Shown one piece after another: positions 1,663 to 21,029 of a DNA stretch of 64,000 nucleotides. The notes under the pieces were generated by a model. The model was not told where the DNA came from, searched no databases, and was given only the letters and a program-made list of their open reading frames with translations. The DNA is taken from contig CAMZHX010000006.1 of the NCBI GenBank assembly GCA_947307055.1, positions 62,001 through 126,000 of the forward strand, in the 5' to 3' direction. This DNA comes from an uncultured Selenomonadales bacterium. Its GTDB lineage: Bacteria; Bacillota; Negativicutes; Selenomonadales; Selenomonadaceae. Each line of letters starts with the position of its first letter. Position 1 is the first letter of the stretch. The translations under genes were made by a program, and so were the position numbers.

Positions 1663-2739
1663 ATGAAAAAAATCTTTTTCAACGCTCTTATCGCCGTTTT
1701 TATCGCTATCTTTCCAATAAATCACCTAAACGCCGCTTCCCGCGCAGAAATTTCTGCTATTCAAGTTCAATATGCTTCCGATTTTAAATATTGGAACGAA
1801 AATTCACCTACTCTAGCCAAAATTGTCGATTTCGTCGAAGATATTTCCAATCCGAACAGCGAAAATTACATTCCGCCTGAAGATAGGGTCGCAACTTTCG
1901 ATTTGGACGGCACTATTTACTGCGAAACCGCTCCTTACTACTTTAAACAGATGATGTTTCTGCATCGCGTCCTCGAAGATAAAAATTTTCACCCCTCAAA
2001 GGAATTAATCAAGATTGCTACCGATGTTAAGCCGCTTATCATGGAAAAAAAGCACGTTCCAGACAAACTTAAATCAAAATTGAGCTACGGTACCCGAAAA
2101 GCTTACGAAAATATGACTTACGACGAATATTGCGCCTATGTTCGCGAATTTATGGACACTAACGAGGTCGGACTCACCAATTTAAAGCGCGGCGAGGCTT
2201 TTTATCTCCCTATGGTCGAAATTATTTCCTATTTGACTAACAACGGCTTCAAAGTTTATATGAATTCCGCCGGTGAACGCGAAATCGTTCGTTGCCTCAT
2301 CGAAGGCGCAATAAATATCCCTTCCGACCGCCTTTTAGGCTCCAATATCGAATATATTTCCACTAAACAGGATAAAAATCGCGGCGAAAACTATAATTTC
2401 GACAAATATAAAGAAAAAATCGTCCGCTCTACCGGTTATCCCTACAAAAATGAGAAAAATAATAAGGTTTTCTCCATTCTCTACGAAATCGGGAAAAAAC
2501 CTGTGCTCGCATTCGGAAATTCCAGCGGCGATTACGCTATGCTCGAATTCACGCTCCAAAATAATAAATATCGCGCCGAATCGTTCTTTGTCCTGTGCGA
2601 TGATACCGAACGCGAACTCGGAAACGCTAAACGCGCCGAAAAAGATAAAAATTACGCCCTTAAACGCGGTTGGAATCCAATTTCTATGAAAAATGAGTTC
2701 AAAACCATTTATGGCGATAACGTCACACTTTCTAAATAA
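1663..2739 (+). CDS. Secreted HAD-superfamily hydrolase, paralog 1
   Basis: Signal peptide; DLDGTIYCETAP motif I; AFGNSSGDYAMLEF; conserved C-term SMKNEFKTIYGDNV. Confidence 0.85.
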   Translation: MKKIFFNALIAVFIAIFPINHLNAASRAEISAIQVQYASDFKYWNENSPTLAKIVDFVEDISNPNSENYIPPEDRVATFDLDGTIYCETAPYYFKQMMFLHRVLEDKNFHPSKELIKIATDVKPLIMEKKHVPDKLKSKLSYGTRKAYENMTYDEYCAYVREFMDTNEVGLTNLKRGEAFYLPMVEIISYLTNNGFKVYMNSAGEREIVRCLIEGAINIPSDRLLGSNIEYISTKQDKNRGENYNFDKYKEKIVRSTGYPYKNEKNNKVFSILYEIGKKPVLAFGNSSGDYAMLEFTLQNNKYRAESFFVLCDDTERELGNAKRAEKDKNYALKRGWNPISMKNEFKTIYGDNVTLSK

Positions 2740-2757
2740 ATTTCTGGAGGTTTTATC

Positions 2758-3834
2758 ATGAAGAAAAAAATTTTAGCGGCTATCGCGGCGGGTTTAATCG
2801 CTTTAAGCTCGTTTAGTGCCACAAATGCCGCATCTCGCGAGGAAATTGCCGCGATTAACGTTCAAACCGCGTCCGATTTCCAATTTTGGAACGAAAATTC
2901 GCCCATTCTAGCTAAAATCGTCGATTTTGTCGAAGATACCACAAATCCTTTTAGCCAAAACTACATTCCGCCCGAAGATAGAATTGCGACCTTCGATATG
3001 GACGGAACTTTTTATTGCGAAACCGCACCGCTTTATTTTCAAGAAACTATGTTCCTGCACCGCGTCTTAGACGATAAAAATTACGTCGCGCCCAAAAAAT
3101 ATCTCAATCTCGCTAAAAAAATTCGTCCAAAAGTCCTCGCGAAAGAAAAATTGACGCCCTCCGAAAGCAAAATGTACTTTGAAGGGCTTACTGCAGTCTA
3201 TGAAGGCATGACTATCGATGAATATCGCGCCTATGTCCGCAATTTTATGCAAGATAACGAGACCGGATTAACAAATTTGAAGCGCGGCGAAGCTTTTTAC
3301 CTGCCTATGGTCGAAATTATTTCCTATCTGACCAATAACGGCTTCAACGTCTACATTGATTCGGCTTGCAGTTACTACACGACGCGCGAACTGGTCGAAG
3401 GCGTCATTCCGATTCAATCTGACCGAATTTTAGGTTCTGATTTCGGTTTAACGTCAACAAATATGGGCAAAGAGGATCCTCACGACCATTTTTACGACAG
3501 ATTCAAGGAAAAAATCGTAATTTCCGGCAAGCCGCTCAAAGATAACGCTAAAACTCGAAAAATCTTTTCCATTCTGAATCAAATCGGCAAAAAACCCGTG
3601 CTGGCATTCGGAAATTCAAGCGGTGATAGCGGAATGCTCGAATTTACATTGCAGGATAATAAATATCGCTCTGAATCGTTTTTCGTAATCTGCGATGACG
3701 TTGAACGCGAACTCGGTAACCTTGAACGCGCTAAAAATGACAGGAAATTAGCTGAAAAACGCGGTTGGAATCCAATTTCTATGAAAAACGACTTCAAAAC
3801 GATTTACGGCTACAATGTTAAACGCGCAAAATAA
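2758..3834 (+). CDS. Secreted HAD-superfamily hydrolase, paralog 2
   Basis: Closely similar to the preceding ORF; DMDGTFYCETAP; AFGNSSGDSGML. Confidence 0.85.
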   Translation: MKKKILAAIAAGLIALSSFSATNAASREEIAAINVQTASDFQFWNENSPILAKIVDFVEDTTNPFSQNYIPPEDRIATFDMDGTFYCETAPLYFQETMFLHRVLDDKNYVAPKKYLNLAKKIRPKVLAKEKLTPSESKMYFEGLTAVYEGMTIDEYRAYVRNFMQDNETGLTNLKRGEAFYLPMVEIISYLTNNGFNVYIDSACSYYTTRELVEGVIPIQSDRILGSDFGLTSTNMGKEDPHDHFYDRFKEKIVISGKPLKDNAKTRKIFSILNQIGKKPVLAFGNSSGDSGMLEFTLQDNKYRSESFFVICDDVERELGNLERAKNDRKLAEKRGWNPISMKNDFKTIYGYNVKRAK

Positions 3835-3922
3835 AATTTTTAATATTTTTACTGCCTAATGGCAGATTTTTTTTTGCATATGTGTTATAATGGGCAAAAT
3901 AATTCATAGGAGTTGATTTATC

Positions 3923-4762
3923 TTGAAGAAATCGATTTTGGCGGCAATCTGCGCGGCTTGTTTGCTGATAACGGGTTGCGGCGGCGGAGAAAATGCGCCT
4001 AAGCCCAAAGAAAATGCTAAAATCGGCGTTATAACGCATTTGACCGCCAGCGAAACTGAATACAACGATATTATGAGCAAATTGGAGAAAAGTTATCGCC
4101 CATCGAAGGTAAGTCTCGACGCGACTTACAAATATTTCGACAGAATGAGCGAAATGCAACTCGCGCTTGAATCTGAGAAGATTGATATTCTCTCAACTTA
4201 TCAAAGCGTCGCTGATTACATGCTGCAAAATTCTTCCGACAAAGAAATTTTGCCGACAAATAAAAATTTGAGCGATTCTTTTTGTTTTGCACTGCGCAAG
4301 GGCGATACTGCGTTGAAAAACGACCTGAACAAGGCGATTAAGGAAATGTCAGCCGACGGCACGTTGAGTAGGCTTTCAAAAGAATATATAATCGAAATTA
4401 AAAATGGTTATGAGCCGCCCGCAGTTAAAATTGCCAAAATTGAGGGCGCGGAGACGATAAAAATTGCTGTCACTGGCGATTTGCCACCTTTCGATATGAT
4501 TTCAGCGGACGGGACGCCGACAGGTTTTAGTACAGCGGTTTTGGAAGAAATTTCAAAGCGAATCGGGAAAAATATCGAGATAATTAGCATAGACAGCGGC
4601 GCGAGGGCATCTATTTTGACTTCAAAGGGCGCGGACGTTGTATTTTGGGTAGCAGTGCCGAAAGATAGCACGTTAATTCCCTCTGAAATCGACAAACCAA
4701 GCGAAATCGACGTAACTGACCCGTATTATCACGATAATATCGTTCACATTATCAAAAAATAA
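3923..4762 (+). CDS. Lipoprotein, amino-acid-type ABC transporter substrate-binding domain (SBP family 3)
   Basis: Lipobox LLITGCGGG; IKIAVTGDLPPFDMISADGTPTGFSTAVLEEISKRIG. Confidence 0.8.
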   Translation: MKKSILAAICAACLLITGCGGGENAPKPKENAKIGVITHLTASETEYNDIMSKLEKSYRPSKVSLDATYKYFDRMSEMQLALESEKIDILSTYQSVADYMLQNSSDKEILPTNKNLSDSFCFALRKGDTALKNDLNKAIKEMSADGTLSRLSKEYIIEIKNGYEPPAVKIAKIEGAETIKIAVTGDLPPFDMISADGTPTGFSTAVLEEISKRIGKNIEIISIDSGARASILTSKGADVVFWVAVPKDSTLIPSEIDKPSEIDVTDPYYHDNIVHIIKK

Positions 4763-4780
4763 ATTAGGAGGTTGTTTTTT

Positions 4781-5269
4781 ATGAGTTTTATAAATAAATT
4801 TGCGGTTATTTGCTGCATTATGAGCGTAGTTTTAATTGCGAATGGCTGTTCGGAAGGCAATGTGAGCTTTGAGGAGAAATCGTCGGTAGAAGTAAGCACG
4901 TCATCGGGCATAAATTTTTCTTCGAGCTACAGCGAAACTAAATCTTCTGCGAGCGAACCTTTCACATTTAAAATAAATGACGCGAATATTCTCGACGGAA
5001 AAGTTGAAATTTACACAAGCATAACGAATAACGGCAATCGCGACACTACTTTAAGGGAAATGTCGCTAACTTTTGTAGCAAATGATTCAAACGGAAAAGA
5101 AATTACGAATGGCACAATACATTACGATAATATTTCGGTAAGTCTTCCGCAAAATACGGAAATTTATCAACTTTTCGTGATAGAAAATCCAGAATACAAG
5201 AGATATGACGACGGATTCAACATCAACTGCAATTTTGATAATATAAAGGTAGATCCTGACATTCAGTAA
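4781..5269 (+). CDS. Putative lipoprotein of unknown function
   Basis: Lipobox VLIANGCSEG; Ser-rich linker; beta-rich C-terminal domain; ATG 4781 within ORF 4772-5269. Confidence 0.6.
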   Translation: MSFINKFAVICCIMSVVLIANGCSEGNVSFEEKSSVEVSTSSGINFSSSYSETKSSASEPFTFKINDANILDGKVEIYTSITNNGNRDTTLREMSLTFVANDSNGKEITNGTIHYDNISVSLPQNTEIYQLFVIENPEYKRYDDGFNINCNFDNIKVDPDIQ

Positions 5270-5290
5270 ATATTTTTTAGCAATAAAAAG

Positions 5291-5319
5291 CCCTTCGGCG
5301 GAGTGTCGGAGGGTTTTTT
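5291..5319 (+). terminator. Rho-independent terminator (CCCTTCGGC-GGAGT-GTCGGAGGG-T6)
   Basis: 9-bp stem including two G-T wobbles followed by T-run. Confidence 0.75.
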
Positions 5320-5321
5320 CG

Positions 5322-5350
5322 TTGACGGAGGGAATTTTTTTTGCTAAAGT
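5322..5350 (+). promoter_or_regulatory. Sigma70-like promoter TTGACG-N17-TAAAGT
   Basis: Exact 17-bp spacing; same architecture at 5907-5935 and 7896-7924. Confidence 0.65.
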
Positions 5351-5369
5351 GTATTCGGAGGCGATAAAA

Positions 5370-5606
5370 ATGACAGAAACGATAAATATAACAGTTGACA
5401 GCGAGGATTTGAAGGAATTTAAGGAAACAACCGGAATGAGCATAGGCGATTGCATTAAAATATTAGTGAACAGCGTAAAATACGGCGGGAAATTGGAATT
5501 CGACCCGTTCTGGAGCGATGAGAACATGGCGGAACTTAAAAAGATAGCTGAAGATGCAAAACACGGGCGTAATATGCATGAACACGACTTGATTGAGGTG
5601 GAATAA
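5370..5606 (+). CDS. Type II antitoxin, RelB/DinJ family
   Basis: MTETINITVDSEDLKEFKETTGMSIGDCIKILVNSV...; stop overlaps toxin start; ATG at 5370. Confidence 0.75.
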   Translation: MTETINITVDSEDLKEFKETTGMSIGDCIKILVNSVKYGGKLEFDPFWSDENMAELKKIAEDAKHGRNMHEHDLIEVE

Positions 5607-5869
5607 TGAAATTTCTGTGGCACGATATAGCTTGGGCGAGTTACGTAAAATGGCAACGTGAAGACAAAAAGACATTGAAACGAATAAATAATCTGTTGCA
5701 AGACATAGACAGGAACGGATATAATTGCATAGGCAAGCCGGAACCACTGAAAGATAATTATTCTGGTTGGTGGAGCGTCCGAATTGATGAAAAGAACCGC
5801 TTGATATTCAAAATCGAGAACGAAATTATAGAAATATATCAATGTGGCACACATTACGGCGACAAATAA
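5606..5869 (+). CDS. yoeB: Type II toxin, YoeB/Txe family mRNA interferase
   Basis: LKRINNLLQDIDRNGYNCIGKPEPLKDNYSGWWSVRIDEKNRLIFKIENEIIEIYQCGTHYGD: characteristic YoeB signature. Confidence 0.88.
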   Translation: MKFLWHDIAWASYVKWQREDKKTLKRINNLLQDIDRNGYNCIGKPEPLKDNYSGWWSVRIDEKNRLIFKIENEIIEIYQCGTHYGDK

Positions 5870-5876
5870 TAAAAAG

Positions 5877-5904
5877 CCCTTCGGCGGTTGTCGGAGGGTT
5901 TTTT
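5877..5904 (+). terminator. Rho-independent terminator, same family as 5291
   Basis: CCCTTCGGCGGTTGTCGGAGGGTTTTTT. Confidence 0.75.
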
Positions 5905-5906
5905 CA

Positions 5907-5935
5907 TTGACTACTATAATTTTTTTTGCTAAAGT
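5907..5935 (+). promoter_or_regulatory. Sigma70-like promoter TTGACT-N17-TAAAGT
   Basis: Repeat of the 5322-5350 architecture. Confidence 0.65.
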
Positions 5936-5956
5936 GTATTCGGAGGCGAAAAAAAT

Positions 5957-7015
5957 ATGCGTAAGAAGATTTTAGCGGCGATAACAGCGGGATTGATAGC
6001 GTTTAGCTCATTCGGAGCGGTTGACGCCATGCCGCGCGACGAAATTTCCAAAATTCAAGTCAAAAAGGCTAAGGATTTTAAATATTGGGCGAAAAATTCG
6101 GTCGCGAATCAAAAATTGGTCGAATATGTGACGGACGTGACGAATAAGAAGAGCAAAAATTATATTCCGGTGGAAGATAGAATCGCGGTTTTCGACGTTG
6201 ACGGCACGATTGCTTGCGAAACTGCGCCATTTTGCTTTGATTTTATGATGTTCGTATATCGTGCGCTCGACGATCCGAATTATATTGCTTCCGCGCAGGA
6301 CAAAGCCAATGGCGAACTTGTCAAAGCGGCGATTTACGCTAAAAAAATGACAAATGACGTTCGCCGCAAGCATTGCGAGTCGAATGCAAACGTTTTCGCG
6401 GGCATGACGGCTGAAGAGTTCGCCGATTACACCAGAAATTATTTAAAAACGCCAGTCGAAGGCTTTGACAACTTAAAAGTCGGCGAGGCGTTTTATTTGC
6501 CGATGATTGAAGTAATTTCGTATTTAAAGGCGAATGATTTTAAAATTTTCCTTGTGAGCGGCGCGGATAGGGATTATATGAGAACTTCGGCGGAAATTTT
6601 GCCCGTTGACGGCATGATTGGCACGGATTATAAATACGTGGCGACGAATCAGGGCGAAATTGACGGCATGGACTATACTTTGAAGCCCGAAGATAAAGTT
6701 ATTCGCGGCGAATTCGTCAGCAAGGACATAAATATGAACAAAGTCAGCAATATGGCGCGTGAAATTGGCAAAAAACCGGTTTTAGCGTTCGGAAATTCGA
6801 GTGGAGATAGTTCGATGATAAATTTTTCAATGCGCGGCAATAAATATCGGACTGCGGCATTTTTTGTAATCTGCGACGACTTGGAGCGCGAATTCGGCAA
6901 CCTTGACAAGGCGAATAAATGCGTAAAGCTTGCTGACGACAACGGTTGGATAAAAATTTCGATGAAAAACGACTTCAAGACGATTTACGGCGACAATGTA
7001 AGGCTTTCGAGATAA
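5957..7015 (+). CDS. Secreted HAD-superfamily hydrolase, paralog 3
   Basis: DVDGTIACETAP; AFGNSSGDSSMINF; WIKISMKNDFKTIYGDNVRLSR. Confidence 0.85.
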   Translation: MRKKILAAITAGLIAFSSFGAVDAMPRDEISKIQVKKAKDFKYWAKNSVANQKLVEYVTDVTNKKSKNYIPVEDRIAVFDVDGTIACETAPFCFDFMMFVYRALDDPNYIASAQDKANGELVKAAIYAKKMTNDVRRKHCESNANVFAGMTAEEFADYTRNYLKTPVEGFDNLKVGEAFYLPMIEVISYLKANDFKIFLVSGADRDYMRTSAEILPVDGMIGTDYKYVATNQGEIDGMDYTLKPEDKVIRGEFVSKDINMNKVSNMAREIGKKPVLAFGNSSGDSSMINFSMRGNKYRTAAFFVICDDLEREFGNLDKANKCVKLADDNGWIKISMKNDFKTIYGDNVRLSR

Positions 7016-7032
7016 AATTCGCAAAAAAAAAT

Positions 7033-7074
7033 TAGGGCTAAGCTCCGAAAATGGAGTTTAAGCCCATTTTTTAT
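7033..7074. terminator. Probable bidirectional terminator
   Basis: gggctaagctcc-gaaaat-ggagtttaagccc flanked by A-run and T-run, between convergent ORFs. Confidence 0.7.
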
Positions 7075-7253
7075 TGCTTATTAAGTTTTTTTAGTTCGCG
7101 ACGGCGTTTAAGTTCGCGATTCTTCCTAATTTTTTCGGTTTCTAAGTCTAAAAGGCGTTTCCACTCATCAGCGAGATAGAAGAAAATTTTGATGATATAA
7201 GCGTTAGGAGCGTTGTTAATGATACGAAGAGTGCGTTCGTCGTCGAAAATCAT
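7071..7253 (-). CDS. Small basic hypothetical protein
   Basis: 60-aa ORF MIFDDERTLRIINNAPNAYIIKIFFYLADEWKRLLDLETEKIRKNRELKRRRELKKLNKQ preceded by ggaggtgaaatt RBS; fills an intergenic gap. Confidence 0.5.
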   Translation of the reverse strand: MIFDDERTLRIINNAPNAYIIKIFFYLADEWKRLLDLETEKIRKNRELKRRRELKKLNKQ

Positions 7254-7437
7254 AAAATTTCACCTCCGAGAGCGATTTTTTCGATTATAACACGTGAAAA
7301 TGGGTTTTGAAAGGCATTCATTTTTCGGAGCAGACTGCAGAAAATTTTTTGCTAAAGTGTGTAACGAAATGGGATTTCAAACGTATAAGGGACAGAAAGA
7401 AAAAACACAATCAAAAATCAAAAGGAGACTGATAAAA

Positions 7438-7806
7438 ATGGCAAACAGAGAAGAAAACATCAAAAAAATCGACGCGGTGCTCGAAGCAATGAGCGATGAG
7501 GAACTCGACCAGGTCGCAGGCGGCACTTGGGCGGAAACGGCGGCGGACAGTCGCTTCCTAAACAGCTTGAACGGCTCAACCGACCGCTACGGCGCACTCA
7601 GAATTGCGTTTACTCCCGGCAACAAAATCCAAGACGAAATTAAGGCCGGTTGGGCAAAGGTCGGAATCACGTTTACCGCGCACAACGGAGCAATAACCGG
7701 CAATGAATACTACCTAGACGGCAAGAAAATCACCCAAAGCGAAGCACGCAGGCACGCAATGGAAGTCGTCGGCAAGGTCATGGACGTAAAGGATTGGGAT
7801 TGGTAA
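7438..7806 (+). CDS. Double-glycine (bacteriocin-type) leader peptide precursor/secreted peptide
   Basis: MANREENIKKIDAVLEAMSDEELDQVAGG|TWAETAAD...; ELDQVAGG is the classic GG leader; RBS aaaggag. Confidence 0.65.
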   Translation: MANREENIKKIDAVLEAMSDEELDQVAGGTWAETAADSRFLNSLNGSTDRYGALRIAFTPGNKIQDEIKAGWAKVGITFTAHNGAITGNEYYLDGKKITQSEARRHAMEVVGKVMDVKDWDW

Positions 7807-7865
7807 GCTAAACACAGTATCGACAGCTAAAATGCGGTGTCACGGTCGCAATCTATGATGAAAAG

Positions 7866-7893
7866 CCCTTCGGCACATGTCGGAGGGTTTTTT
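7866..7893 (+). terminator. Rho-independent terminator, same family as 5291
   Basis: CCCTTCGGCACATGTCGGAGGGTTTTTT. Confidence 0.75.
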
Positions 7894-7895
7894 CG

Positions 7896-7924
7896 TTGAC
7901 GGCGCGGAAAATTTTTGCTAAAGT
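7896..7924 (+). promoter_or_regulatory. Sigma70-like promoter TTGACG-N17-TAAAGT
   Basis: Third copy of the terminator-promoter cassette. Confidence 0.65.
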
Positions 7925-7945
7925 GTGTTCGGAGGCGATAAAAAT

Positions 7946-9028
7946 ATGCGTAAAAAGATTTTAGCGGCGATAACTGCGGGATTGATAGCATTTGGCTCGT
8001 TCGGAGTGGTTGACGCGATGCCGCGCGACCAAATTGCCAAAATCCAGGTCAAAAAGGCGTCCGATTTCAAGTATTGGACGAAAAATTCAGTCGCGAATCA
8101 AAAATTGGTTGAGTATGTAACCGACGTGACGAACAAGAAGAGCAAAAATTATATTCCGGTCGAGGACAGGCTCGCGGTGTTCGATATGGACGGGACATTT
8201 ATCGGGGAGAGTATGCCGTGCTATTTCGAGTGGATGCTTTACCTTGAACGCGCCCTTCACGACGAAAATTATACGCCGTCAGCGGAAGATTTGGAGTATG
8301 CGCGCATGGTAGACGCCGAAATTCGCGCAGGGCACTTCATGACGGGGAAATTTCCTAAAGGAATTGACTTAGGCGAGGCGAAATCGCAAGAATCGGTCTT
8401 CGCGGGCATGACGCCTAAAGATTATGAAGCATACGTGCGCAAATTTATGGAAAAACCGGTGGAAGGTCTCACGAATTTAAAGTGGGGCGAAGCATTTTTC
8501 CTGCCGATGGTCGAAGTAATCAAATATTTGCAGGCGAATCAATTCACGGTGTACGTTGTGACGGGTTCAGACCGCCCGGCAATGCGCGTAATGGGTTCGG
8601 AAGTGCTGAAAATCCCTTACAATCAAATAATCGGGACGAATCCGGAGATAATAGCGTCGAATCAGGGCGACATTTCGGCCGATGATTACGCTTACAAGCA
8701 CGATGATTATCTGATTCGTGGCGGGCTGACGAAAAAGAACTTGAAAATGAATAAAGTCGTCGCGATTGAGCATGAAATAGGCAAGCAACCGGTTTTAGCG
8801 TTCGGGAACAGCGGCGGCGATACTTCCATGCTAAATTACGCGATAACGGGCAATAAATATAAGAGCTTGAGCTTCTTTGTCATTTGCGACGATTTGGAGC
8901 GCGGATTGGGCAATCAGAAAAAGGCTGACGGTTGCGTTGCGCTTGCCGAAAAGAACGGCTGGATAAAAATTTCGATGAAAAACGACTTCAAGACGATTTA
9001 CGGCGACAACGTCAAGCGGACGGAGTGA
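7946..9028 (+). CDS. Secreted HAD-superfamily hydrolase, paralog 4
   Basis: MRKKILAAITAGLIAFGSFGVVDAM signal; DMDGTFIGESMP; AFGNSGGDTSML. Confidence 0.85.
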   Translation: MRKKILAAITAGLIAFGSFGVVDAMPRDQIAKIQVKKASDFKYWTKNSVANQKLVEYVTDVTNKKSKNYIPVEDRLAVFDMDGTFIGESMPCYFEWMLYLERALHDENYTPSAEDLEYARMVDAEIRAGHFMTGKFPKGIDLGEAKSQESVFAGMTPKDYEAYVRKFMEKPVEGLTNLKWGEAFFLPMVEVIKYLQANQFTVYVVTGSDRPAMRVMGSEVLKIPYNQIIGTNPEIIASNQGDISADDYAYKHDDYLIRGGLTKKNLKMNKVVAIEHEIGKQPVLAFGNSGGDTSMLNYAITGNKYKSLSFFVICDDLERGLGNQKKADGCVALAEKNGWIKISMKNDFKTIYGDNVKRTE

Positions 9029-9561: not shown

Positions 9562-9981
9562 TTAGGGAATTGCAATGCGATAATTTTTAAGCTCAAGAGT
9601 ATCATTATCCGAATAGCGATAACGGCTTACTATGCTGAGTTTTTCTGGAATATTAACGTTTATTCGATACTCGTCCTTTATTAAGAGTTCTTCCACATAG
9701 ATGAGGTCAGGATCCATATACGCTTCCTCTGTAGCGGAAAGAACAATTTCAATGACATCTCCTTGCGCGTCACGCTTTATCAAACGATACTCGGTTTGAT
9801 CGTCAAAAAAATGGCATTCAATCGGAGTTTCTCCCGACAGGTTTTCTTCGCCGTCATATACCAATTCACCGTTTTTTATTTCATAGCGTTTAAATACCAG
9901 TTGTTTCTTAAAATACAAAAGCATTATTCCTTTTGGCGGCAACTTTTCAAGCGAAATCTCCCACATCATCATTCTCCTCCA
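9562..9981 (-). CDS. Csx19-like (type III-D accessory, TIGR03984-like) protein
   Basis: Last gene of the Cas10/Csx10 operon, overlaps the upstream ORF; C-terminal FFDDQTEYRLIKRDAQGDVIEIVLS...VSRYRYSDNDTLELKNYRIAIP resembles Csx19. Family assignment from memory; exact start uncertain (several Met codons). Confidence 0.45.
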   Translation of the reverse strand, partial: WRRMMMWEISLEKLPPKGIMLLYFKKQLVFKRYEIKNGELVYDGEENLSGETPIECHFFDDQTEYRLIKRDAQGDVIEIVLSATEEAYMDPDLIYVEELLIKDEYRINVNIPEKLSIVSRYRYSDNDTLELKNYRIAIP

Positions 9982-11701
9982 GATTTTCACGATACCAATT
10001 TGACATAATTTCCATTGGCAACGCGGGATAATATGTATTACGCAAATAATCGAAGATAGGTGTCGGCAACAATTCCTCTACGGGAACACCTGCTTGATAG
10101 TCACTTTTGTCGATAAAAGCCAGAAATTTTATTTGCTTCTTTAGGAGGCTTAGCAAGACATAATGAATCAGTTCAGCTCCCAAATTAATATCGCGAGTGG
10201 ATAAACGATATTCCGTGGCAAATTTGGCGGGTTCTAGGTTTTTTGCTAACCGATAATATCCATCTCGTGCGGGATAGGCGGCTATTTCTCCATAACCATT
10301 TCTTGTCCATTCTCCAAAAAAAGCGTGAAGTATGGGGGCAATGTCTATCGGCTCATTGTCTTTGGTGCAGAAACGTACCACAGAACCAGCCTTAAGACAA
10401 CGTACGACAGCACCTTCTCGTTCCCATTCTTCATTTAATTTGAAATCTTTTTGTATATCCGTACATTCACCTTCCACTATAAGCTTACCTGATACACCGA
10501 GCAAACGTTCTATCTGTGTCAAAAGATCTTCCGTGCTGTAACTGGGCATTCCCTCATCATTTATTATGAGTCCGTCGGAAAGACAAGCTACATCAAACCG
10601 CCGCGACAATACCTCGCATTGAGGATTTTTTTCGCGCAACCTGATTGTCTGCAAGTATATTTCGCCGTATCCTTCCTCTGTGAGCAGACCGATAGAAAAG
10701 AAACCGTTCTTGTCAAAAAAAGTCGCTAGTTTCCGTAATTCTTCATCGGAACCGTATATCGTTCCCGTTAAGGTTTGTCCCTCTGCCAGTGCATCATACA
10801 TTTTCCCTGCGCCAGATGTTATACGCACAATTTCTGGACAGACATAACGCACCAATTTCGTTTCAAAATCTCTGGTGTAAGCGTTTCTCACGTTTACAAC
10901 CTGTTCTGGCACTTTGAGATTTTTTTCGGCGGCGAGCTTGTATCTCAGTTGCTCGTGGTCAAGTTTCACCACTGACATACAAAGTGGCATTGGAAAGAGG
11001 CGTTCACCCTCATTCATGATGTAAGCGTTGGTAGCTGTCAATTTTTCTGCGGCGTTCGGCAAAATTTTTTCACACAAATTTTTTCTGACAACCGCACCAG
11101 GGGCATATAAATAAGTAACTTGCTCCGAATTGTAAGGCGCGAGAAAACACACGGGAGAAATAAGTTGCATAGAATAATCAAGGGCATAATACTCAGATGA
11201 CGTTGACAAATTTGCCGCATTGTTATCCTGCGACCTCGTTTCTAAAGAGCATTCCACCTCGCCAGAGATGTCGTCATATTCGATCCCTATGCGTTTAATA
11301 TTCCGCAGAAAAGCTTCCATTTCCTCATATTTATCCTTATCGAACTCGACGGAGGCGAAAAAAGTTTGTCCAGCCTTCAAAGAACAAATTCTGCTCATAC
11401 TCTTTTTGTCGAAGCGATCTTCCATAAAGAAAGAATTGATATGCAATGTACTGTCTTTATTTGCGCTTTGCAAATCACGAGTTGCTTGTATGAGTCCCAA
11501 ATAGCCTTCGGGATGAGCGCGTTTCATTTTTACTCCCGCAAACGGCCACTTTCTGTCGCCTAATATTTCCAAAGGCGAGATATACGGCATACCTGCCCGA
11601 TCCTTAGGCACATCACAGGAATAACCCCGTGCGGCTGTAGTTGGATAAGCAAAAGACACTTTCCCCAAAAGTTTTATGCGAACCATGAACATTGAAATCA
11701 A
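9947..11701 (-). CDS. Csx10-like RAMP-superfamily protein (type III-D Cas5-like)
   Basis: DRAGMPYISPLEILG N-terminal RAMP block, SLKAGQTFFASVEFD, Gly-rich loops EEGYGEIYL and RNGYGEIAAYPARDGYY. Confidence 0.65.
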   Translation of the reverse strand: MISMFMVRIKLLGKVSFAYPTTAARGYSCDVPKDRAGMPYISPLEILGDRKWPFAGVKMKRAHPEGYLGLIQATRDLQSANKDSTLHINSFFMEDRFDKKSMSRICSLKAGQTFFASVEFDKDKYEEMEAFLRNIKRIGIEYDDISGEVECSLETRSQDNNAANLSTSSEYYALDYSMQLISPVCFLAPYNSEQVTYLYAPGAVVRKNLCEKILPNAAEKLTATNAYIMNEGERLFPMPLCMSVVKLDHEQLRYKLAAEKNLKVPEQVVNVRNAYTRDFETKLVRYVCPEIVRITSGAGKMYDALAEGQTLTGTIYGSDEELRKLATFFDKNGFFSIGLLTEEGYGEIYLQTIRLREKNPQCEVLSRRFDVACLSDGLIINDEGMPSYSTEDLLTQIERLLGVSGKLIVEGECTDIQKDFKLNEEWEREGAVVRCLKAGSVVRFCTKDNEPIDIAPILHAFFGEWTRNGYGEIAAYPARDGYYRLAKNLEPAKFATEYRLSTRDINLGAELIHYVLLSLLKKQIKFLAFIDKSDYQAGVPVEELLPTPIFDYLRNTYYPALPMEIMSNWYRENLEENDDVGDFA

Positions 11702-13245
11702 TCCCCCAGTTCTGCCGGAAGAAAATCTGCCAATTCTGCTGCGTCAAACCAAAAAGCGTATTGCGTGCCGTCTATGTCCCGATACAGTGGCTCTCCCAGC
11801 CATGCTTTGAAATCGACGCCTCTTTCTTTTTGGAGCTGGAGCCATTGGGAAAATTCCTGCTTATTCATCTCATAAAGTTGCCGCATAATATTAACTTTCC
11901 GAATGACAGAAGGAAGTTCCCGAATATTTTTCACCCTTTGCAAAAGTTTTCGATACGAACGGGCGGTGCCCTCGCTCTCTTTGTCCAGGCAGTAAGGACG
12001 CAATCCCAGATGAATACCCGCGTTTGTGGTATAGACTTTATCTCTGAGCAGGGAGAGCCTTTGCGCGTAGGGATTTTCGGAAATCTGATAGTCTATCCAG
12101 TTTCCGGCCAAACCGTTCCGCAGATTATGTGATTTTTTCGCCTCATTTTTGGCACTCTTGCAACATTCTTCCGCCAGTCGGTAGGCTGAATGAAAATCAT
12201 AATCTGTCGTCACGAAAGCCAGCCCCGCAGAGATATAAAACGGAATTTTAAGCTGCGGCGTATTCCAGATAAATTCTCCTTCTAGATTTTTATAAAAAAA
12301 CTCCAAAAAGGGGAACATCAACCTGACGCTTCCCATGTAGTTTAAATCGTCACCGCCTTGGTGCAGTAGCTGAAATTCACGAGGGAAATTTTCCACTCGT
12401 CCAATATTGGCAACATAGAAATTTTCAAGATCCGTCATTGTGCGGCTTACGAGGCGTTTATAGCCGGATTCGATATGGAAATTTATTTGGCGTCTGGCGC
12501 GAATACCCTCTCCATATTTGAAAGTGCCTTGAAGAATACGGTTTATGGTAACGCCGAAATTATTCCCGTCTAAATGCATAACCGCCCAATATTCCTTTTT
12601 ATCACGGTGTTTGGTCACGGGAATTTTTGTCAGTTTTGTCGTGTCTCCATGATTACGACTCTCCAATCTGCGCAGTTGCGATGCCCTTGAGATATAGTCC
12701 CCTCGTTCTTGATCAAAGGTAATAACCGGCATACCAGTTTTTTCTTCGCGCATTATCACTGGCAACGCGTCCATCGGCTCCAAAGTATGAGCTGTAGCTT
12801 TGATTTGATCTAACTTTTGATATAAACGTAAGACATCATTTCCCATGTGATTTGTCTTTTCCACAACAGCCGCTATCATGTTTAGAGAATAGGCGTGATT
12901 CAAATAATAACGCGAGACCTTGCGGATAATTTTTTGCGCTAATGCCCCAGTGCGTATAATCAAGAGAGCCTTTCCGGCACTGCAGAGTATTTGTTGAACT
13001 TTTATATTCTTATCGTCAAAATAAGGAATGGGTGCGTCGGGATTGTTTGAGAGGTCATATTCTTCCGGTTGTAAGGGCGTATCAATATGACTGAGAGCAA
13101 ACCGAATCCCGTCTTTGAGTATACGACTAACGAGCATACTGCCCCCACAAGTATCAACAAAGGAATTGTTAAAAAAAATATAGTTCTGTATTTGCCGAGT
13201 GGTCAAAGCGCATAGAACTTCCTTATCCATGAGACTTAGATTCAT
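11698..13245 (-). CDS. Compact Cas10-like polymerase/cyclase (palm domains, intact GGDD; no HD domain recognised)
   Basis: AVMHLDGNNFG (12553-12570) and LLHQGGDDLNYMG (GGDD at 12346-12357); N-terminal palm-like TTRQIQNYIFFNNSFVDTCGGSMLVSRIL and SAGKALLIIRT. Confidence 0.8.
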   Translation of the reverse strand: MNLSLMDKEVLCALTTRQIQNYIFFNNSFVDTCGGSMLVSRILKDGIRFALSHIDTPLQPEEYDLSNNPDAPIPYFDDKNIKVQQILCSAGKALLIIRTGALAQKIIRKVSRYYLNHAYSLNMIAAVVEKTNHMGNDVLRLYQKLDQIKATAHTLEPMDALPVIMREEKTGMPVITFDQERGDYISRASQLRRLESRNHGDTTKLTKIPVTKHRDKKEYWAVMHLDGNNFGVTINRILQGTFKYGEGIRARRQINFHIESGYKRLVSRTMTDLENFYVANIGRVENFPREFQLLHQGGDDLNYMGSVRLMFPFLEFFYKNLEGEFIWNTPQLKIPFYISAGLAFVTTDYDFHSAYRLAEECCKSAKNEAKKSHNLRNGLAGNWIDYQISENPYAQRLSLLRDKVYTTNAGIHLGLRPYCLDKESEGTARSYRKLLQRVKNIRELPSVIRKVNIMRQLYEMNKQEFSQWLQLQKERGVDFKAWLGEPLYRDIDGTQYAFWFDAAELADFLPAELGD

Positions 13246-13631
13246 TATGCCTCGCCTCTTTTTGTGAAATAATCATAGTCTCTAAAACGCTCAAAAACAA
13301 AAATAGATGTCTTTTCGTTTGAGCCGTCGGGAAGCTTTCTTTCGATCGTCCGACGCTGGGAACAAGTGCACATAACCTTGATTCCGTCTTGCAACAGTTT
13401 GTCCACCAACATAAAAATAAAAGTAAACTCTCCTGCTGCCATAACTGCTGTGGGTTTCATTGCCTCTATTTTTTCCACGCACTCCTGTACGATTTTCCTC
13501 AGATCTTCCGTATCCATATCGGGAGTAATTTGAGGAAACGGAAAATCCACTACCTCGCCATATTGTTTTGCCGCTTCCTTTTGCTTTTCTATCCATATTT
13601 CATAGGGATGATTTGAGAAATTTATCAGCAT
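13245..13631 (-). CDS. Small single-domain CARF/Rossmann-like protein (Csx20-like, candidate ring nuclease)
   Basis: TAVMAAGEFTFIFMLVDKLLQDGIKVMCTCSQRRTIERKLPDGSNEKTSIFVFERFRDYDYF; adjoins cas10-like start; strong RBS aaggag upstream. Family assignment by recall. Confidence 0.5.
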   Translation of the reverse strand: MLINFSNHPYEIWIEKQKEAAKQYGEVVDFPFPQITPDMDTEDLRKIVQECVEKIEAMKPTAVMAAGEFTFIFMLVDKLLQDGIKVMCTCSQRRTIERKLPDGSNEKTSIFVFERFRDYDYFTKRGEA

Positions 13632-13650: not shown

Positions 13651-15000
13651 TTAACAGTGTTGCCATATGCATTGCCTGCCTTTTACGAAAGCCATAAGCC
13701 CCCAAAAAATCTGTGTGATTAAGATTCCCTGCCAAACGCCTGTTATCCCAAAGTCCAATACATACGCAAGCAGAAAACTCGCTAACGGGTTTACAATCGT
13801 CACGCAAACGGAAGCAATTTGTCGAGGTATTGTCATTTCCCCAACTGCACGCATTGCCGCAATCATGATTATTCGCTCGATTTGAAAACAAGTGATGCTT
13901 GCTATGAAGTAAACCGCTGTACGACCTTGGATTATGTAAGTTTCGTCGGTGAAGTATGCGCCGAAAAATAAATCGGACATTGAGACGTAAATTGCGCTAA
14001 GGATTAAAGACACTACCAATCCCGTCTTAAGAAACAGCCGCAGACGGGCTTTTACGACTGTCATATTTCCCATTCCCGCGTTTTTACCCAAAATCGCTAC
14101 TGCCGCGCTTTGCAATCCGTCGCCGCAAGCAAAGGAAAAATTCATCAGCAACATTCCGACGAAATACACGGCTGTATCTTTTGACGGGAACAGGGACACA
14201 ATGACTCCGCAGATTAGGAAGCCGAGACGCATGGCGAGATTTTCCAGAACTATATTTCCGGCTTTAGATTTGATGTCAGCGAGAATTTCCGATTTTTTGA
14301 AGCTATGAGCAAAAAAATTTTTAAAGCTCAAAAATTCTTCTTGACGAGTTATCGCCATGAAACTTACAGCCAAAGATGCCACACTGCCCAGCACTGTAGC
14401 TATAGCGTTACCCGTTACTTCAAGACGTGGAAAACCGCAATGACCTTCTATCAAAAGATAGTTAAACAAAATATCCACCAAGCCCAAGGTAAGACTGGCT
14501 ATCAGAGTAACATGCGTCTTTCCCAAACCACGCAAAGCACCGTTCAAGATAATCGAACTAACCTGAAAAATCATAAAACCCATGATGATGCTGAAAAATT
14601 CGGCAGAAAGTTCTATCGTCTCTTCTTGTCTGCTACACAGCTCCATTACCGGACGAGCAAAGACAAAAAGTAGTGTACCAAAAACGACAGCACCGGTTAT
14701 TCCTATCTTCAGCACAGAAAAGAGGTATTCTTTAGCCTCCTCCCTATCGTTTTTACCGTACGCCCGAGCGATAAAGAACGAAAGTGCCGTTCCCAACGCG
14801 AAGAAAACGGACAGAACAAACACTTTCGGCTGAGCAGTGAGAGAAACGGCAGAAATAGCCTTATCTCCCAATACGGCAATCATCTTGGTATCAATAACGG
14901 CTACAGCCACTATCACCAAACTTTCCAGCATTGCCGGCACAGCGATTTTCGCTATTTCAAAAAATGGCGGAAGTTTATCTTGATTGAATCTCATTTGCAT
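13651..15000 (-). CDS. MATE-family efflux transporter
   Basis: ~12 TM; FFEIAKIAVPAMLESLVIVAVAVIDTKMIAVLGDKAISAVSLTAQP; paired repeat organisation. Confidence 0.88.
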   Translation of the reverse strand: MQMRFNQDKLPPFFEIAKIAVPAMLESLVIVAVAVIDTKMIAVLGDKAISAVSLTAQPKVFVLSVFFALGTALSFFIARAYGKNDREEAKEYLFSVLKIGITGAVVFGTLLFVFARPVMELCSRQEETIELSAEFFSIIMGFMIFQVSSIILNGALRGLGKTHVTLIASLTLGLVDILFNYLLIEGHCGFPRLEVTGNAIATVLGSVASLAVSFMAITRQEEFLSFKNFFAHSFKKSEILADIKSKAGNIVLENLAMRLGFLICGVIVSLFPSKDTAVYFVGMLLMNFSFACGDGLQSAAVAILGKNAGMGNMTVVKARLRLFLKTGLVVSLILSAIYVSMSDLFFGAYFTDETYIIQGRTAVYFIASITCFQIERIIMIAAMRAVGEMTIPRQIASVCVTIVNPLASFLLAYVLDFGITGVWQGILITQIFWGLMAFVKGRQCIWQHC

Positions 15001-17405: not shown

Positions 17406-18827
17406 ATGAGCAGTAAATTTATTCAGCGCGTCGCTTATGCTTGCGGCACTTTCGGGCACGATGTTTTTTATATGATGCTGGGTAGCTATTTTATGATTTT
17501 TGTTACCAGTAATCTTTTCAACTCGACCGATGCCGAAGGCAAATTGCAAGATGCTTACATGATTGGCGTTGTCACGACGATTATTTTAGTTTTGCGCGTC
17601 GGCGAACTTTTAATCGACCCGTTTATCGGGAATATGATTGACAAGACTAAAACTCGTTGGGGGAAATTTAAGCCGTGGGTTTTAGTCGGCGGCGTCGTCG
17701 GAGCGGTCTGCTTAGCGATTTTGTTCACGGACTTTGGCGGGGCGGCTATAACAAATCCCATGACTTACCTAATCGGATTCGCGATAGTTTATCTGATTAT
17801 GGACGTTTTCTACTCGGCTAAAGACGTTGCGATTTGGTCAATGATTCCGGCTCTAAGTTTCGACAGCCGCGAGCGCGAAGTTACTGCAACTTATGCTCGT
17901 ATCGGTTCAGTTTTCGGGGCGCAGTTGGTAACGGTTATGGTTATGCCGCTGGTGCTTTTCTTCTCGATAAATCAAAATGGCGGCGCGGGCGACCCTCACG
18001 GCTGGTTTGCATTTGCCTGCATTGGCGGCGCAATATCTGTTATCGGCGCAATCATTCTCGGTATCGGCACGAAAGAAGAACAATCAGCTCTGCGCGAAAA
18101 TAAGGAAGAAACCGGCTTCAGTGATGTTTTCAAGGTGCTTTCTCAAAATGACCAGCTTATGTGGATTGCTTTTACATATTTGATTTACGGCTTGGGCGCA
18201 AATATTGTCAACAATTTCAACTTGTATTATTTCATTTACATTCTGGGGGACTCAACGCAATTTTCTTTTCTCGGCATAATAAACGTTGTTATTGGGCTTG
18301 CAGCCGTTGCGCTCTTCCCGACTTTGACTAAAAAATTCAGCCGCAGAGGTTTATTCTTCGTATCAATTAGCATTATGATTATCGCCCTAATTTTTTACGC
18401 CTTCGCGGGTAAAAGCGTAATGATGACATTGTTTGCGGCAGGACTTTTCGCGCTCCCGCAACCGCTTATTTTCTTAGTCGTCTTGATGACGATTACTGAC
18501 ACCGTTGAATATGGGCAATTAAAGCTCGGTCACCGCGACGAGGCACTTGTACTTTGCGTGCGTCCGCTGATTGATAAACTTTCCGGAGCAATTACAAGCG
18601 CGATGGTTGGTTATACGGCGGTTTGGGTCGGCATGGTTTCAGGCGCAACTGCCGATTCGATTTCTGCTGACGGCGTTTTACATTTTAAGTTGATAATGTT
18701 CGCCGCGCCGGTTATCTTGATAGTTATTGCGGGGCTTTTCTATCGCGCTAAAGTGAAACTTACTGAAGGAGAGCACGAGCGCATTGTTAAAGAGCTTGAA
18801 TCGAAATGGGCGGATATGAACAAGTAA
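17406..18827 (+). CDS. GPH-family sugar:cation symporter (MelB/LacS-like)
   Basis: MSSKFIQRVAYACGTFGHDVFYMMLGSYFMIFVTSNLF; DPFIGNMIDKTKTRWGKFKPW. Confidence 0.9.
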   Translation: MSSKFIQRVAYACGTFGHDVFYMMLGSYFMIFVTSNLFNSTDAEGKLQDAYMIGVVTTIILVLRVGELLIDPFIGNMIDKTKTRWGKFKPWVLVGGVVGAVCLAILFTDFGGAAITNPMTYLIGFAIVYLIMDVFYSAKDVAIWSMIPALSFDSREREVTATYARIGSVFGAQLVTVMVMPLVLFFSINQNGGAGDPHGWFAFACIGGAISVIGAIILGIGTKEEQSALRENKEETGFSDVFKVLSQNDQLMWIAFTYLIYGLGANIVNNFNLYYFIYILGDSTQFSFLGIINVVIGLAAVALFPTLTKKFSRRGLFFVSISIMIIALIFYAFAGKSVMMTLFAAGLFALPQPLIFLVVLMTITDTVEYGQLKLGHRDEALVLCVRPLIDKLSGAITSAMVGYTAVWVGMVSGATADSISADGVLHFKLIMFAAPVILIVIAGLFYRAKVKLTEGEHERIVKELESKWADMNK

Positions 18828-18845
18828 TTTTGAGGAGGTTTTGTT

Positions 18846-20015
18846 ATGGAAGTTTTTGATGTTATCAAGGAAGCGTTTGAAGAGACATTCGGCGCGGCGG
18901 ATACTCAAAAATATTTTTCGCCTGGTCGAGTGAATTTAATCGGCGAGCATACCGACTACAACGGCGGCAATGTCTTTCCCTGCGCAATTTCGCTGGGCAC
19001 TTATGCTTTGGTCGCGCCTCGCAAGGATAACATGACTAGAATTTATTCCATGAACATGGCGGACAAAGGCGTTATTGAATTTGAAATGAACGGCTTAAAG
19101 TACAATCGCGCTTACGACTGGGCAAATTACGTTGCGGGCACGATTGCCACGTTTGAACAGGCAGGGCATAAGACGACTAATGGCTTTGACATTGTAATTT
19201 ATGGCACGTTACCTGCGGGAGCCGGTCTCAGTTCGTCGGCGTCTCTGGAAGTTTTAACCGCCGTCATTTTGAACGAAAATTTTAATTTCGGGCTTGATAT
19301 GGTCGAAATGGTTAAGCTCTCGCAGAAGGCGGAAAATGAATTCGTCGGCATGAATTGCGGCATTATGGATCAATTCGCGGTCGGCATGGGCAAGAAAGAT
19401 TGCGCTATCCTCCTCGACTGCAACACGCTAAAATATCGCTACAGCTCGGTTAAGCTCGACGATTGCGCGATTGTCATAACGAATACAAATAAGCCCCATT
19501 CGCTAGTTACTTCCGCTTACAATGAACGCCGCCAACAATGCGAACACGCGTTGAAAGAAGTTCAAGCCGTAAAGCCTGAATTAAAAGCTTGGGGCGAATT
19601 GACTAACGAAGAGTTCGACAAATTGGCGGAGTATATCAGTTCGCCGATTGAAAGACTTCGTGCGCGTCATGCAGTTCGCGAAAATCAGCGAACACTTGAG
19701 GCAGTCTCCGCGCTTGAAAATAATGATTTGGAAAAGTTCGGGCAACTTATGCACGATTCGCACGTTTCTCTTCGCGACGATTACGACGTAACAGGAATTG
19801 AGCTTGACACTTTGGCCGAGCTTGCTTGGGGCGTCGAGGGTTGCATAGGTTCGAGAATGACGGGTGCGGGCTTTGGCGGTTCGACCGTCAGCATTGTAAA
19901 AAATTCTGCGATTGACGAGTTCAAAACTAAGCTCGAAACGGGCTACAAGAAAAAAATTGGCTACGCGCCGAGCTTTTACGTTGCGAGTATTTCGCAAGGC
20001 ACGCACAAAATTTAA
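18846..20015 (+). CDS. galK: Galactokinase
   Basis: PGRVNLIGEHTDYNGGNVFPCAI; GTLPAGAGLSSSASLEV; TGAGFGGSTVSIV. Confidence 0.97.
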   Translation: MEVFDVIKEAFEETFGAADTQKYFSPGRVNLIGEHTDYNGGNVFPCAISLGTYALVAPRKDNMTRIYSMNMADKGVIEFEMNGLKYNRAYDWANYVAGTIATFEQAGHKTTNGFDIVIYGTLPAGAGLSSSASLEVLTAVILNENFNFGLDMVEMVKLSQKAENEFVGMNCGIMDQFAVGMGKKDCAILLDCNTLKYRYSSVKLDDCAIVITNTNKPHSLVTSAYNERRQQCEHALKEVQAVKPELKAWGELTNEEFDKLAEYISSPIERLRARHAVRENQRTLEAVSALENNDLEKFGQLMHDSHVSLRDDYDVTGIELDTLAELAWGVEGCIGSRMTGAGFGGSTVSIVKNSAIDEFKTKLETGYKKKIGYAPSFYVASISQGTHKI

Positions 20016-20027
20016 GAGGTGATTTTA

Positions 20028-21017
20028 ATGGCAATTTTAGTATGCGGCGGCGCGGGCTATATCGGTTCGCACGCAGTTTATCAGCTGGTGAAAGCCGGCG
20101 AAGATGTTGTTATCGTCGATAATCTCCAGAACGGTCATCGCGGCGCAATCAATCCTGCCGCAAAATTTTATCAAGGCGATATTCGCGACGCCAACATTCT
20201 CGATAAAATTTTTACAGAGAATAAAATCGAAGCCGTGATTCATTTTGCTGCCTACATAGAGGCGGGAGAAAGCGTCGAAAAGCCGCTAAAATATTTCAAT
20301 AACAACGTTTACGGAATGCAAATCTTGCTGGAATCAATGGTGAGAAATGGCGTTGATAAGATTGTTTTCAGTTCTACGGCGGCGACTTACGGCGAGCCTG
20401 AAAAATTCCCAATCGAAGAAAACGACAGAAAGCAACCGATTAACCCTTACGGCGAATCGAAATTGATTATGGAAAAAATGATGAAGTGGGTTAGCCGCGC
20501 CAATGGTATCCGCTTTGTAAGTTTGCGCTATTTCAATGCGGCGGGCGCGGTCGAGGACGGCTCAATCGGCGAAGACCATCACCCCGAAACGCATTTAATC
20601 CCGCTGATTTTGCAAGTGCCGCTCGGTAAACGCGACCACATTACGATTTTCGGCGACGACTACCCCACGCCCGACGGAACTTGCCTACGCGATTATATTC
20701 ACGTTATCGACCTTGCCGACGCGCATATTTTAGCGTTAAATTATCTGCGTAAGGGCGGCGCGTCAAATGTTTTCAATCTCGGCAACGGGCAGGGCTTTTC
20801 CGTCAAGGAAATGATTATCGCGGCTGAAAAAGTTACCGGACAAAAAATTAAAACGGAAATGGGCACGCGTCGCGCAGGTGACCCCGCTCAACTCATCGCC
20901 TCCAGTGATAAGGCTAGAAAAATTTTAGGTTGGACGCCGCAATTTACCGACGTGGAAAAAATTATCGAGACCGCTTGGACGTGGCATAAAAATCACCCGA
21001 ACGGCTACGGGGATTGA
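20028..21017 (+). CDS. galE: UDP-glucose 4-epimerase
   Basis: [60 protein letters not shown]. Confidence 0.97.
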
Positions 21018-21029
21018 AAGGAAAAGATT

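What the first reader, a model, noticed from the sequence alone, without database searches (positions are those of the whole stretch)
9562..13631. Array-less, minimal type III-D-like operon: Csx20-like - compact Cas10 (GGDD) - Csx10-like RAMP - Csx19-like
Four genes with overlapping or abutting ends on the minus strand look like the signalling half of a type III-D CRISPR system. Seen: DGNNFG and GGDD motifs in a 515-aa Cas10-like protein, a 584-aa RAMP with Gly-rich loops, and a 128-aa Rossmann/CARF-like protein. Not seen in the window: repeat-spacer array, Cas6, Cas1/Cas2, a recognisable Cas7 (Csm3/Csm5/Cmr) subunit, HD domain or Csm6/Can1-type effector. Established knowledge: Cas10 palm domains with GGDD make cyclic oligoadenylates, and small CARF-like proteins can be ring nucleases. 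Inference: a crRNA-independent, or trans-acting, cyclic-nucleotide defence or signalling module built from CRISPR parts. It is distinct from canonical III-D, HRAMP (no Cas10) and single-gene mini-polymerase systems.
Basis: partly seen in the sequence, partly recalled or inferred. Interest (0 to 1): 0.92.

Follow-up and report, generated by a model that had tools for sequence, protein, structure and literature searches.

The report
Array-less CRISPR-derived signalling operon with transporter
A five-gene bacterial operon has kept the signal-making part of a type III CRISPR system (Cas10 and its two closest partner proteins), lost nearly all of the guide-RNA machinery, and is consistently joined to a ring-nuclease-type protein and a MATE-family membrane transporter, which suggests a previously unnoticed nucleotide-signalling system in rumen and gut bacteria.

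Summary
Profiles assign the four genes to Csx20, HD-less Cas10d, Csx10/Cas5-IIId and Csx19, with an intact DGNN/GGDD catalytic palm. Three corrections change the picture. (2) The 584-aa RAMP is structurally a shrunken Cas7-Cas5-Cas11-type fusion. Its Cas7 part is degenerate and lacks the catalytic Asp. (3) It is not a fragment. Eighteen orthologous Cas10s (44-57% identity) in Selenomonadaceae, Lachnospiraceae, Oscillospiraceae and other Clostridia MAGs form one 100/100 clade, under purifying selection, with the same partners. A single MATE clade sits directly upstream in 14 of 17 readable loci. No array, Cas6, Cas1 or separate Cas7 adjoins any locus. Nine of 19 host genomes, including this one and one 99% complete, have no detectable Cas1, Cas6 or RAMP at all. 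Best reading: an array-less, type III-D-derived Cas10 signalling module that does not depend on a canonical crRNA filament, with MATE as output and Csx20 as off-switch. Product, trigger and MATE role are inferred, untested. I found no description of it in the open-access literature searched.

The parts
13651..15000 (-). MATE-family membrane protein (449 aa), first gene of the operon; candidate effector or exporter
   Evidence: Pfam MatE 1e-37; a single operon-linked MATE clade, 100/100 support, apart from about 20 paralogues; close homologues only in operon-bearing genomes of 189 searched
13245..13631 (-). Csx20 (128 aa), CARF-like, family of cA4 ring nucleases
   Evidence: PADLOC Csx20 3e-35; conserved NHP..W and GE(F/Y) residues shared with Csx20 of canonical III-D loci; cA4 ring nuclease activity of a Csx20 reported in PMC12409355
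11698..13245 (-). Cas10d, HD-less large subunit (515 aa)
   Evidence: PADLOC Cas10d 5e-67; profile matches 8S9T_C Cas10 of Synechocystis III-Dv at 1.4e-27; AF2 model matches the same chain, TM 0.78
12559..12570 (-). DGNN (residues 226-229), metal-binding motif of the catalytic palm
   Evidence: invariant in 18 orthologues
12346..12357 (-). GGDD (residues 297-300), cyclase/polymerase motif
   Evidence: G298-D299-D300 invariant in 18 orthologues
9947..11701 (-). Fused RAMP protein (584 aa): degenerate Cas7 + Cas5/Csx10 + C-terminal helical (Cas11-like) part
   Evidence: AF2 model best match 8S9T_A, the III-Dv Cas7-Cas5-Cas11 subunit, E 3e-23 over 741 alignment columns
11234..11695 (-). Degenerate Cas7-like domain (residues 3-156)
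   Evidence: hhalign to canonical III-D Cas7, E 5e-4, probability 30%; position of the catalytic Asp not conserved
10097..11185 (-). Cas5/Csx10 domain (residues 173-535) with conserved glycine-rich loop GE.....GYGE
   Evidence: hhalign to canonical III-D Csx10, 99.3%, E 1.7e-20
9562..9990 (-). Csx19 (142 aa)
   Evidence: PADLOC Csx19 1e-13, NCBIfam TIGR03984 4e-4; conserved in 9 loci

Best explanation
A five-gene, array-less signalling module derived from a type III-D CRISPR-Cas system. Cas10, the fused Cas7*-Cas5-Cas11 protein and Csx19 would form only the base of a III-D effector complex. This base senses a trigger without a canonical multi-Cas7 crRNA filament, plausibly an RNA bound by the Cas5 glycine loop and Csx19. 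Cas10 then uses its intact GGDD palm to make a nucleotide second messenger (cOA-type; cA3/cA4 guessed from Csx20). The messenger acts on the MATE membrane protein, either gating it as a membrane effector or being its substrate, and Csx20 degrades the messenger to reset the system. Shown: gene identities, catalytic motifs, conserved five-gene linkage, single origin, purifying selection, absence of array, Cas6, Cas1 and separate Cas7 at the loci. Inferred: trigger, product, effector role of MATE, defence function.
For: Family assignments and folds. Invariant D226 and G298-D299-D300 in 18 orthologues. 18 orthologous Cas10s form one clade, 100/100. Same partners in all loci with enough flank, and no cas7, cas6 or cas1 beside them. 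PF03787 RAMPs absent in 13 of 19 host genomes, Cas1 in 11, and all of RAMP, Cas1 and Cas6 in 9, including the 99% complete G169. MATE directly upstream of csx20 or cas10 in 14 of 17 readable loci; it is next to cas10 when csx20 moves (L058, L062, L068). Operon MATEs carry clade-invariant polar and basic residues (K39, K59, N153, E185, N254, R258) absent from or rare in paralogues, as expected for a dedicated, possibly anionic ligand. dN/dS 0.08-0.19 in pairs tested for cas10, the RAMP and MatE. In III-Dv, Csx19 sits between Cas5 and Cas10 and is needed for assembly (PMC11026444). A Csx20 is a proven cA4 ring nuclease (PMC12409355). No Csx1-type CARF effector in seven host genomes. The transporter-family protein CorA is a proven type III effector (PMC10600005 abstract; PMC12669027).
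Against: No biochemistry. MATE has no CARF, SAVED or other known sensor domain. Trans-supplied crRNA cannot be excluded in the host genomes that have other CRISPR-Cas genes. Genome-wide array searches were not done. The Cas7 domain call is weak by sequence. The trigger is unknown. No defence-island context was seen.
Confidence: 0.5

Rival explanations
1. The MATE is an exporter: Cas10 makes a nucleotide that the MATE pumps out, so the module is an extracellular signalling or messenger-clearance system and not an abortive-infection system.
For: MATE keeps the TM1 aspartate common to transporters (D37, also in all 20 paralogues) and has clade-specific basic residues, consistent with an anionic substrate; the protein looks like an intact transporter, with PDB MATE homologues matched over nearly the full length.
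Against: Csx20 already supplies messenger removal; no precedent in the papers found for a MATE exporting cOA.
Confidence: 0.17
2. A reduced but still crRNA-guided type III-D system that borrows crRNAs from other loci in trans.
For: Cas5 glycine loop conserved; one degenerate Cas7 domain kept; 10 of 19 hosts have at least one of Cas1, Cas6 or RAMP elsewhere.
Against: 9 of 19 hosts have none of the three, including a 99% complete genome; Cas7 catalytic Asp and the following crRNA-side motif are not conserved, and Cas7-2x and Cas7-insertion genes are absent; no conserved small RNA or repeat next to the operon.
Confidence: 0.13
3. Panoptes-like guard: Cas10 makes a messenger constitutively that holds the MATE effector off, and depletion by phage releases it.
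For: Precedent of a miniature Cas10 enzyme that works by inhibitory signalling with a membrane effector (PMC12657230).
Against: A Csx20 ring nuclease in the same operon would itself trigger such an effector; in G121 cas10 is reduced to a fragment and the RAMP is split while MatE stays intact, which an effector held off by Cas10 product should not tolerate.
Confidence: 0.07
4. The MATE is an ordinary drug exporter that merely shares the promoter; the Cas module signals to unlinked effectors.
For: MATEs are common (several to more than ten paralogues in each host) and no sensor domain is present; one locus (L064) has a macro-domain gene upstream instead.
Against: One dedicated MATE clade tracks the operon across several bacterial families and is found in no operon-less Selenomonadaceae genome; no Csx1-CARF effector in seven hosts.
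Confidence: 0.1
5. Decaying fragment of an ordinary III-D locus.
For: Some copies do decay (G121, L061, L073).
Against: Conserved clade of 18 with the same gene set, dN/dS well below 1, intact catalytic residues.
Confidence: 0.03

Closest known systems
Type III-D CRISPR-Cas, including III-Dv of Synechocystis (PDB 8S9T)
   Same: HD-less Cas10d with GGDD, Cas5/Csx10, Csx19; the fused RAMP folds like Cas7-Cas5-Cas11; Csx20 occurs in canonical III-D loci too
   Different: No Cas7-2x, Cas7-insertion, Cas6, Cas1/2 or array; Cas7 domain shrunken and without the catalytic Asp; dedicated MATE partner
HRAMP / ARAMP array-less derivatives
   Same: Array-less, built from Cas5/Cas7-type proteins (PMC12669027, PMC8730458)
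   Different: Those are described with Cas5 and Cas7 homologues and nucleases (most ARAMPs also a Cas1); here an active-looking Cas10, Csx19, Csx20 and a transporter, and no nuclease
Panoptes / mCpol miniature Cas10 systems
   Same: Array-less Cas10-derived enzyme paired with a membrane protein (PMC12657230)
   Different: mCpol is a miniature Cas10 enzyme; here full-length Cas10 with RAMP and Csx19 partners, plus a ring-nuclease-type protein
Cas10-CorA (SAM-AMP) type III systems
   Same: Transporter-family membrane protein as output of Cas10, degrading enzyme in the same locus (PMC10600005 and PMC12255297 abstracts)
   Different: Those are crRNA-guided III-B or III-D loci; CorA has a dedicated sensor domain; here the partner is a MATE and Csx20
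MATE/DinF-NorM transporters
   Same: Full-length MATE fold family (best PDB matches are PfMATE and related entries)
   Different: A separate clade with its own invariant charged and polar residues, always in or beside this operon in the family searched

Membership tests
Type III-D CRISPR-Cas system | HD-less Cas10 with GGDD of the III-D type | tested here: met
   PADLOC Cas10d 5e-67; 8S9T_C match
Type III-D CRISPR-Cas system | Csx10 (Cas5-type) subunit | tested here: met
   hhalign 99.3% to canonical Csx10
Type III-D CRISPR-Cas system | Csx19 subunit | tested here: met
   PADLOC 1e-13
Type III-D CRISPR-Cas system | Several Cas7 backbone domains (Cas7, Cas7-2x, Cas7-insertion) | tested here: not met
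   only one degenerate fused Cas7 domain; none in the flanks; no RAMP family member in own genome
Type III-D CRISPR-Cas system | Cas7 catalytic Asp for target RNA cleavage | tested here: not met
   invariant D26 of canonical Cas7 aligns with a variable position; the alignment is weak
Type III-D CRISPR-Cas system | CRISPR array, Cas6, adaptation genes at or near the locus | tested here: not met
   no array on the 138-kb contig or in homologous loci, with positive controls; Cas1 and Cas6 absent from own and G169 genomes. Arrays elsewhere in the genome not tested
Csx20 ring nuclease | Sequence family membership | tested here: met
   PADLOC 3e-35, conserved motifs
Csx20 ring nuclease | Cleavage of cA4 | not testable with these tools
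   shown for another Csx20 in PMC12409355
HRAMP/ARAMP | Cas5/Cas7 homologues with nucleases (HNH, PD-(D/E)xK) | tested here: not met
   GGDD Cas10 present; no nuclease gene recognised next to the operon
Panoptes (mCpol) | Miniature Cas10 enzyme plus 2TM-beta effector | tested here: not met
   full-length Cas10 of the III-D clade with Cas5 and Csx19 partners
MATE transporter | Full-length MATE family match | tested here: met
   Pfam MatE 1e-37; PDB MATE structures matched nearly full length at about 2e-25
MATE transporter | Ion-coupled export | not testable with these tools
   TM1 Asp conserved (D37), function unknown

The most novel reading that the evidence does not exclude
A guide-independent innate signalling system in which a minimal Cas10-Cas5-Csx19 base complex senses a non-crRNA trigger and makes a cyclic nucleotide that directly gates, or is exported by, a MATE transporter: a MATE protein acting as a second-messenger effector, and an active Cas10 working without CRISPR.
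Probability: 0.4. Interest if true: 0.95.

Novelty: new variant of a known kind. Interest (0 to 1): 0.82.

Why it matters
Array-less type III derivatives described so far are HRAMP/ARAMP, built on Cas5 and Cas7 homologues with nucleases, or miniature Cas10 enzymes (mCpol). A conserved module with a full-length, catalytically intact Cas10 plus only its base partners would show how a CRISPR effector can be rebuilt into a signalling device without guides. It would add the MATE superfamily to the membrane proteins coupled to nucleotide messengers (Cam1, Csx23, CorA). It also makes a direct experiment possible: what activates Cas10 when there is no filament?

Tried and rejected
Fragment of a canonical III-D locus: rejected by a conserved clade of 18 with the same partners. 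Phage- or plasmid-borne: no relatives in the viral or phage collections, and on plasmids only distant canonical III-D. Dedicated guide RNA beside the operon: upstream and downstream regions share no obvious conserved element on inspection and Rfam gives nothing credible. Hidden effector elsewhere: Csx1-CARF family absent in seven hosts; other CARF families not searched. PDB sequence search with the RAMP profile found nothing; only the AF2 fold did. Literature searches for MATE with Cas10 found nothing relevant.
Full report
OBSERVATION. The window is bases 62001-126000 of a 138-kb contig of an 88%-complete MAG; close relatives found later are labelled Selenomonadaceae. PADLOC identifies Csx20 (3e-35), Cas10d (5e-67), Cas5_IIId/Csx10 (1e-20) and Csx19 (1e-13); NCBIfam and Pfam agree at lower sensitivity.

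FIFTH GENE. A MATE-family gene (13651-15000, minus strand) ends 19 nt before csx20. In 189 genomes of the family, close homologues of this MATE (E<=1e-60) occur only in G000, G120, G121, G122 and G169, all of which carry the operon or a remnant of it; the operon-bearing G117 gave no MATE match, and its contig starts inside cas10. Order MatE-csx20-cas10-RAMP-csx19 is kept in G169 with 12 nt between MatE and csx20, and MatE-csx20-cas10 in G120 up to the contig end.

HOMOLOGUES. A scan of 85,462 species genomes with the Cas10 alignment gave a tight set of orthologues (44-57% identity) in MAGs labelled Selenomonadaceae, Lachnospiraceae, Butyrivibrio, Ruminococcus, Oscillospiraceae and Christensenella, many from rumen or gut, and then a sharp drop to 20-26% canonical III-D Cas10s; one truncated copy, L073, scored 36%. 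Of 17 loci whose upstream side can be read, 14 have the MATE immediately upstream (window, L036, L038, L040, L058, L059, L060, L062, L063, L065, L067, L068, L069, L071). In L058, L062 and L068 MATE is next to cas10 directly, so the link is not through csx20 alone. Exceptions: L064 (macro-domain gene upstream), L066 (a MATE of another clade starting within the end of csx19, frameshifted), L061 (decaying). None of the loci has cas7, cas6, cas1 or the TIGR03986 RAMP in the flank available, up to 10 kb. By contrast, canonical III-D loci of the same family carry Cas10, Cas7, Csx10, a second RAMP, Csx19, TIGR03986 and often Cas6 and arrays.

GENOME-WIDE ABSENCE. In 19 host genomes, RAMP family PF03787 is absent in 13, Cas1 in 11, and all of RAMP, Cas1 and Cas6 in 9 (G000, G169, G384, G387, G389-G392, G395); G169 is 99% complete. 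Caveats: MAGs are incomplete, and PF10040 does not catch every Cas6. No array-like repeat was found on the complete contig or the homologous loci beyond short low-complexity or coding repeats, while six of seven canonical control loci gave arrays. Arrays elsewhere in the genomes were not searched.

STRUCTURE. Cas10: AF2 pLDDT 84; best PDB match 8S9T_C, III-Dv Cas10, TM 0.78; profile match 1.4e-27. D226 and G298-D299-D300 invariant in 18. RAMP: AF2 pLDDT 77; best matches by far are the four III-Dv Cas7-Cas5-Cas11 chains (E 3e-23 to 8e-22 over 664-741 columns). hhalign: residues 173-535 are Csx10/Cas5 (99.3%, 1.7e-20); residues 3-156 align to canonical Cas7 only weakly (E 5e-4, 30%), with the canonical catalytic Asp (invariant; D26 in III-Dv per PMC11026444) at a variable position. 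Residues 502-575 are helical, Cas11-like by position. In III-Dv, Csx19 nestles between Cas5 and Cas10 and is needed for assembly (PMC11026444), so what is kept is the base of the complex.

EVOLUTION. Minimal Cas10s form one clade with 100/100 support, separate from all 20 canonical III-D Cas10s. Operon MATEs form one clade with 100/100 support and share invariant residues that paralogues lack or rarely have, among them K39, K59, N153, E185, N254 and R258. dN/dS is 0.08-0.19 in most pairs; csx20 of L063/L065 is 0.32 on few changes. The module is rare and patchy: 6 of 383 genomes of the class searched, 2 of 397 in the family of G385. In five same-genus genomes the HAD-glyoxalase pair that flanks the operon here is followed by other genes, so it is an accessory insertion.

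MECHANISM. Shown: parts, motifs, linkage, absence of guide genes. Inferred: Cas10 makes a messenger (intact palm); Csx20 removes it (a Csx20 cleaves cA4 and, more weakly, cA3, PMC12409355); MATE is output or exporter (constant partner, only membrane protein of the operon, no Csx1-CARF effector in seven hosts). CorA is precedent for a transporter-family effector of Cas10, as are the membrane effectors Cam1 and Csx23 (PMC11229360). PDB titles show a Csm1-Csm4 (Cas10-Cas5) cassette crystallised with cA3 and cA4, so a base-only complex can at least hold the product. The retained MatE in G121, where cas10 is only a fragment, argues against an effector that Cas10 product must hold off.

NOVELTY. The 2025 classification lists HRAMP/ARAMP as array-less type III derivatives and the passages found do not mention a MATE partner. 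My searches found no paper describing this operon; subscription papers and preprints were mostly not searchable.

Noticed in passing
L059:11929-12978 and L039:3439-3966: A radical SAM protein gene follows csx19 directly in one Lachnospiraceae and one Selenomonadaceae locus; possible accessory of the module.
   Followed up: partly
L058:8223-8996: Two Csx20 domains in tandem in one ORF at the 3' end of the operon.
   Followed up: partly
L062:12419-13276: Csx20 with a C-terminal extension of about 160 aa, encoded on the opposite strand.
   Followed up: no
L066:5836-7280: MATE of a different clade overlapping the end of csx19, with a frameshift; no MATE upstream in this locus.
   Followed up: partly
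L064:4029-4562: Macro-domain gene directly upstream of cas10 instead of MATE; a macro-domain gene also lies near the III-Dv locus on Synechocystis pSYSA.
   Followed up: partly
L040:9056-12231 (G121): Degraded operon: intact MatE, cas10 reduced to a fragment, RAMP split into two frames.
   Followed up: yes
window 1663-9028: Several tandem paralogues of a secreted HAD-family phosphatase, common in the genus.
   Followed up: no
window 17406-25629: Galactose/lactose cluster: MFS sugar transporter, galactokinase, galactose-1-phosphate uridylyltransferase, beta-galactosidase.
   Followed up: no
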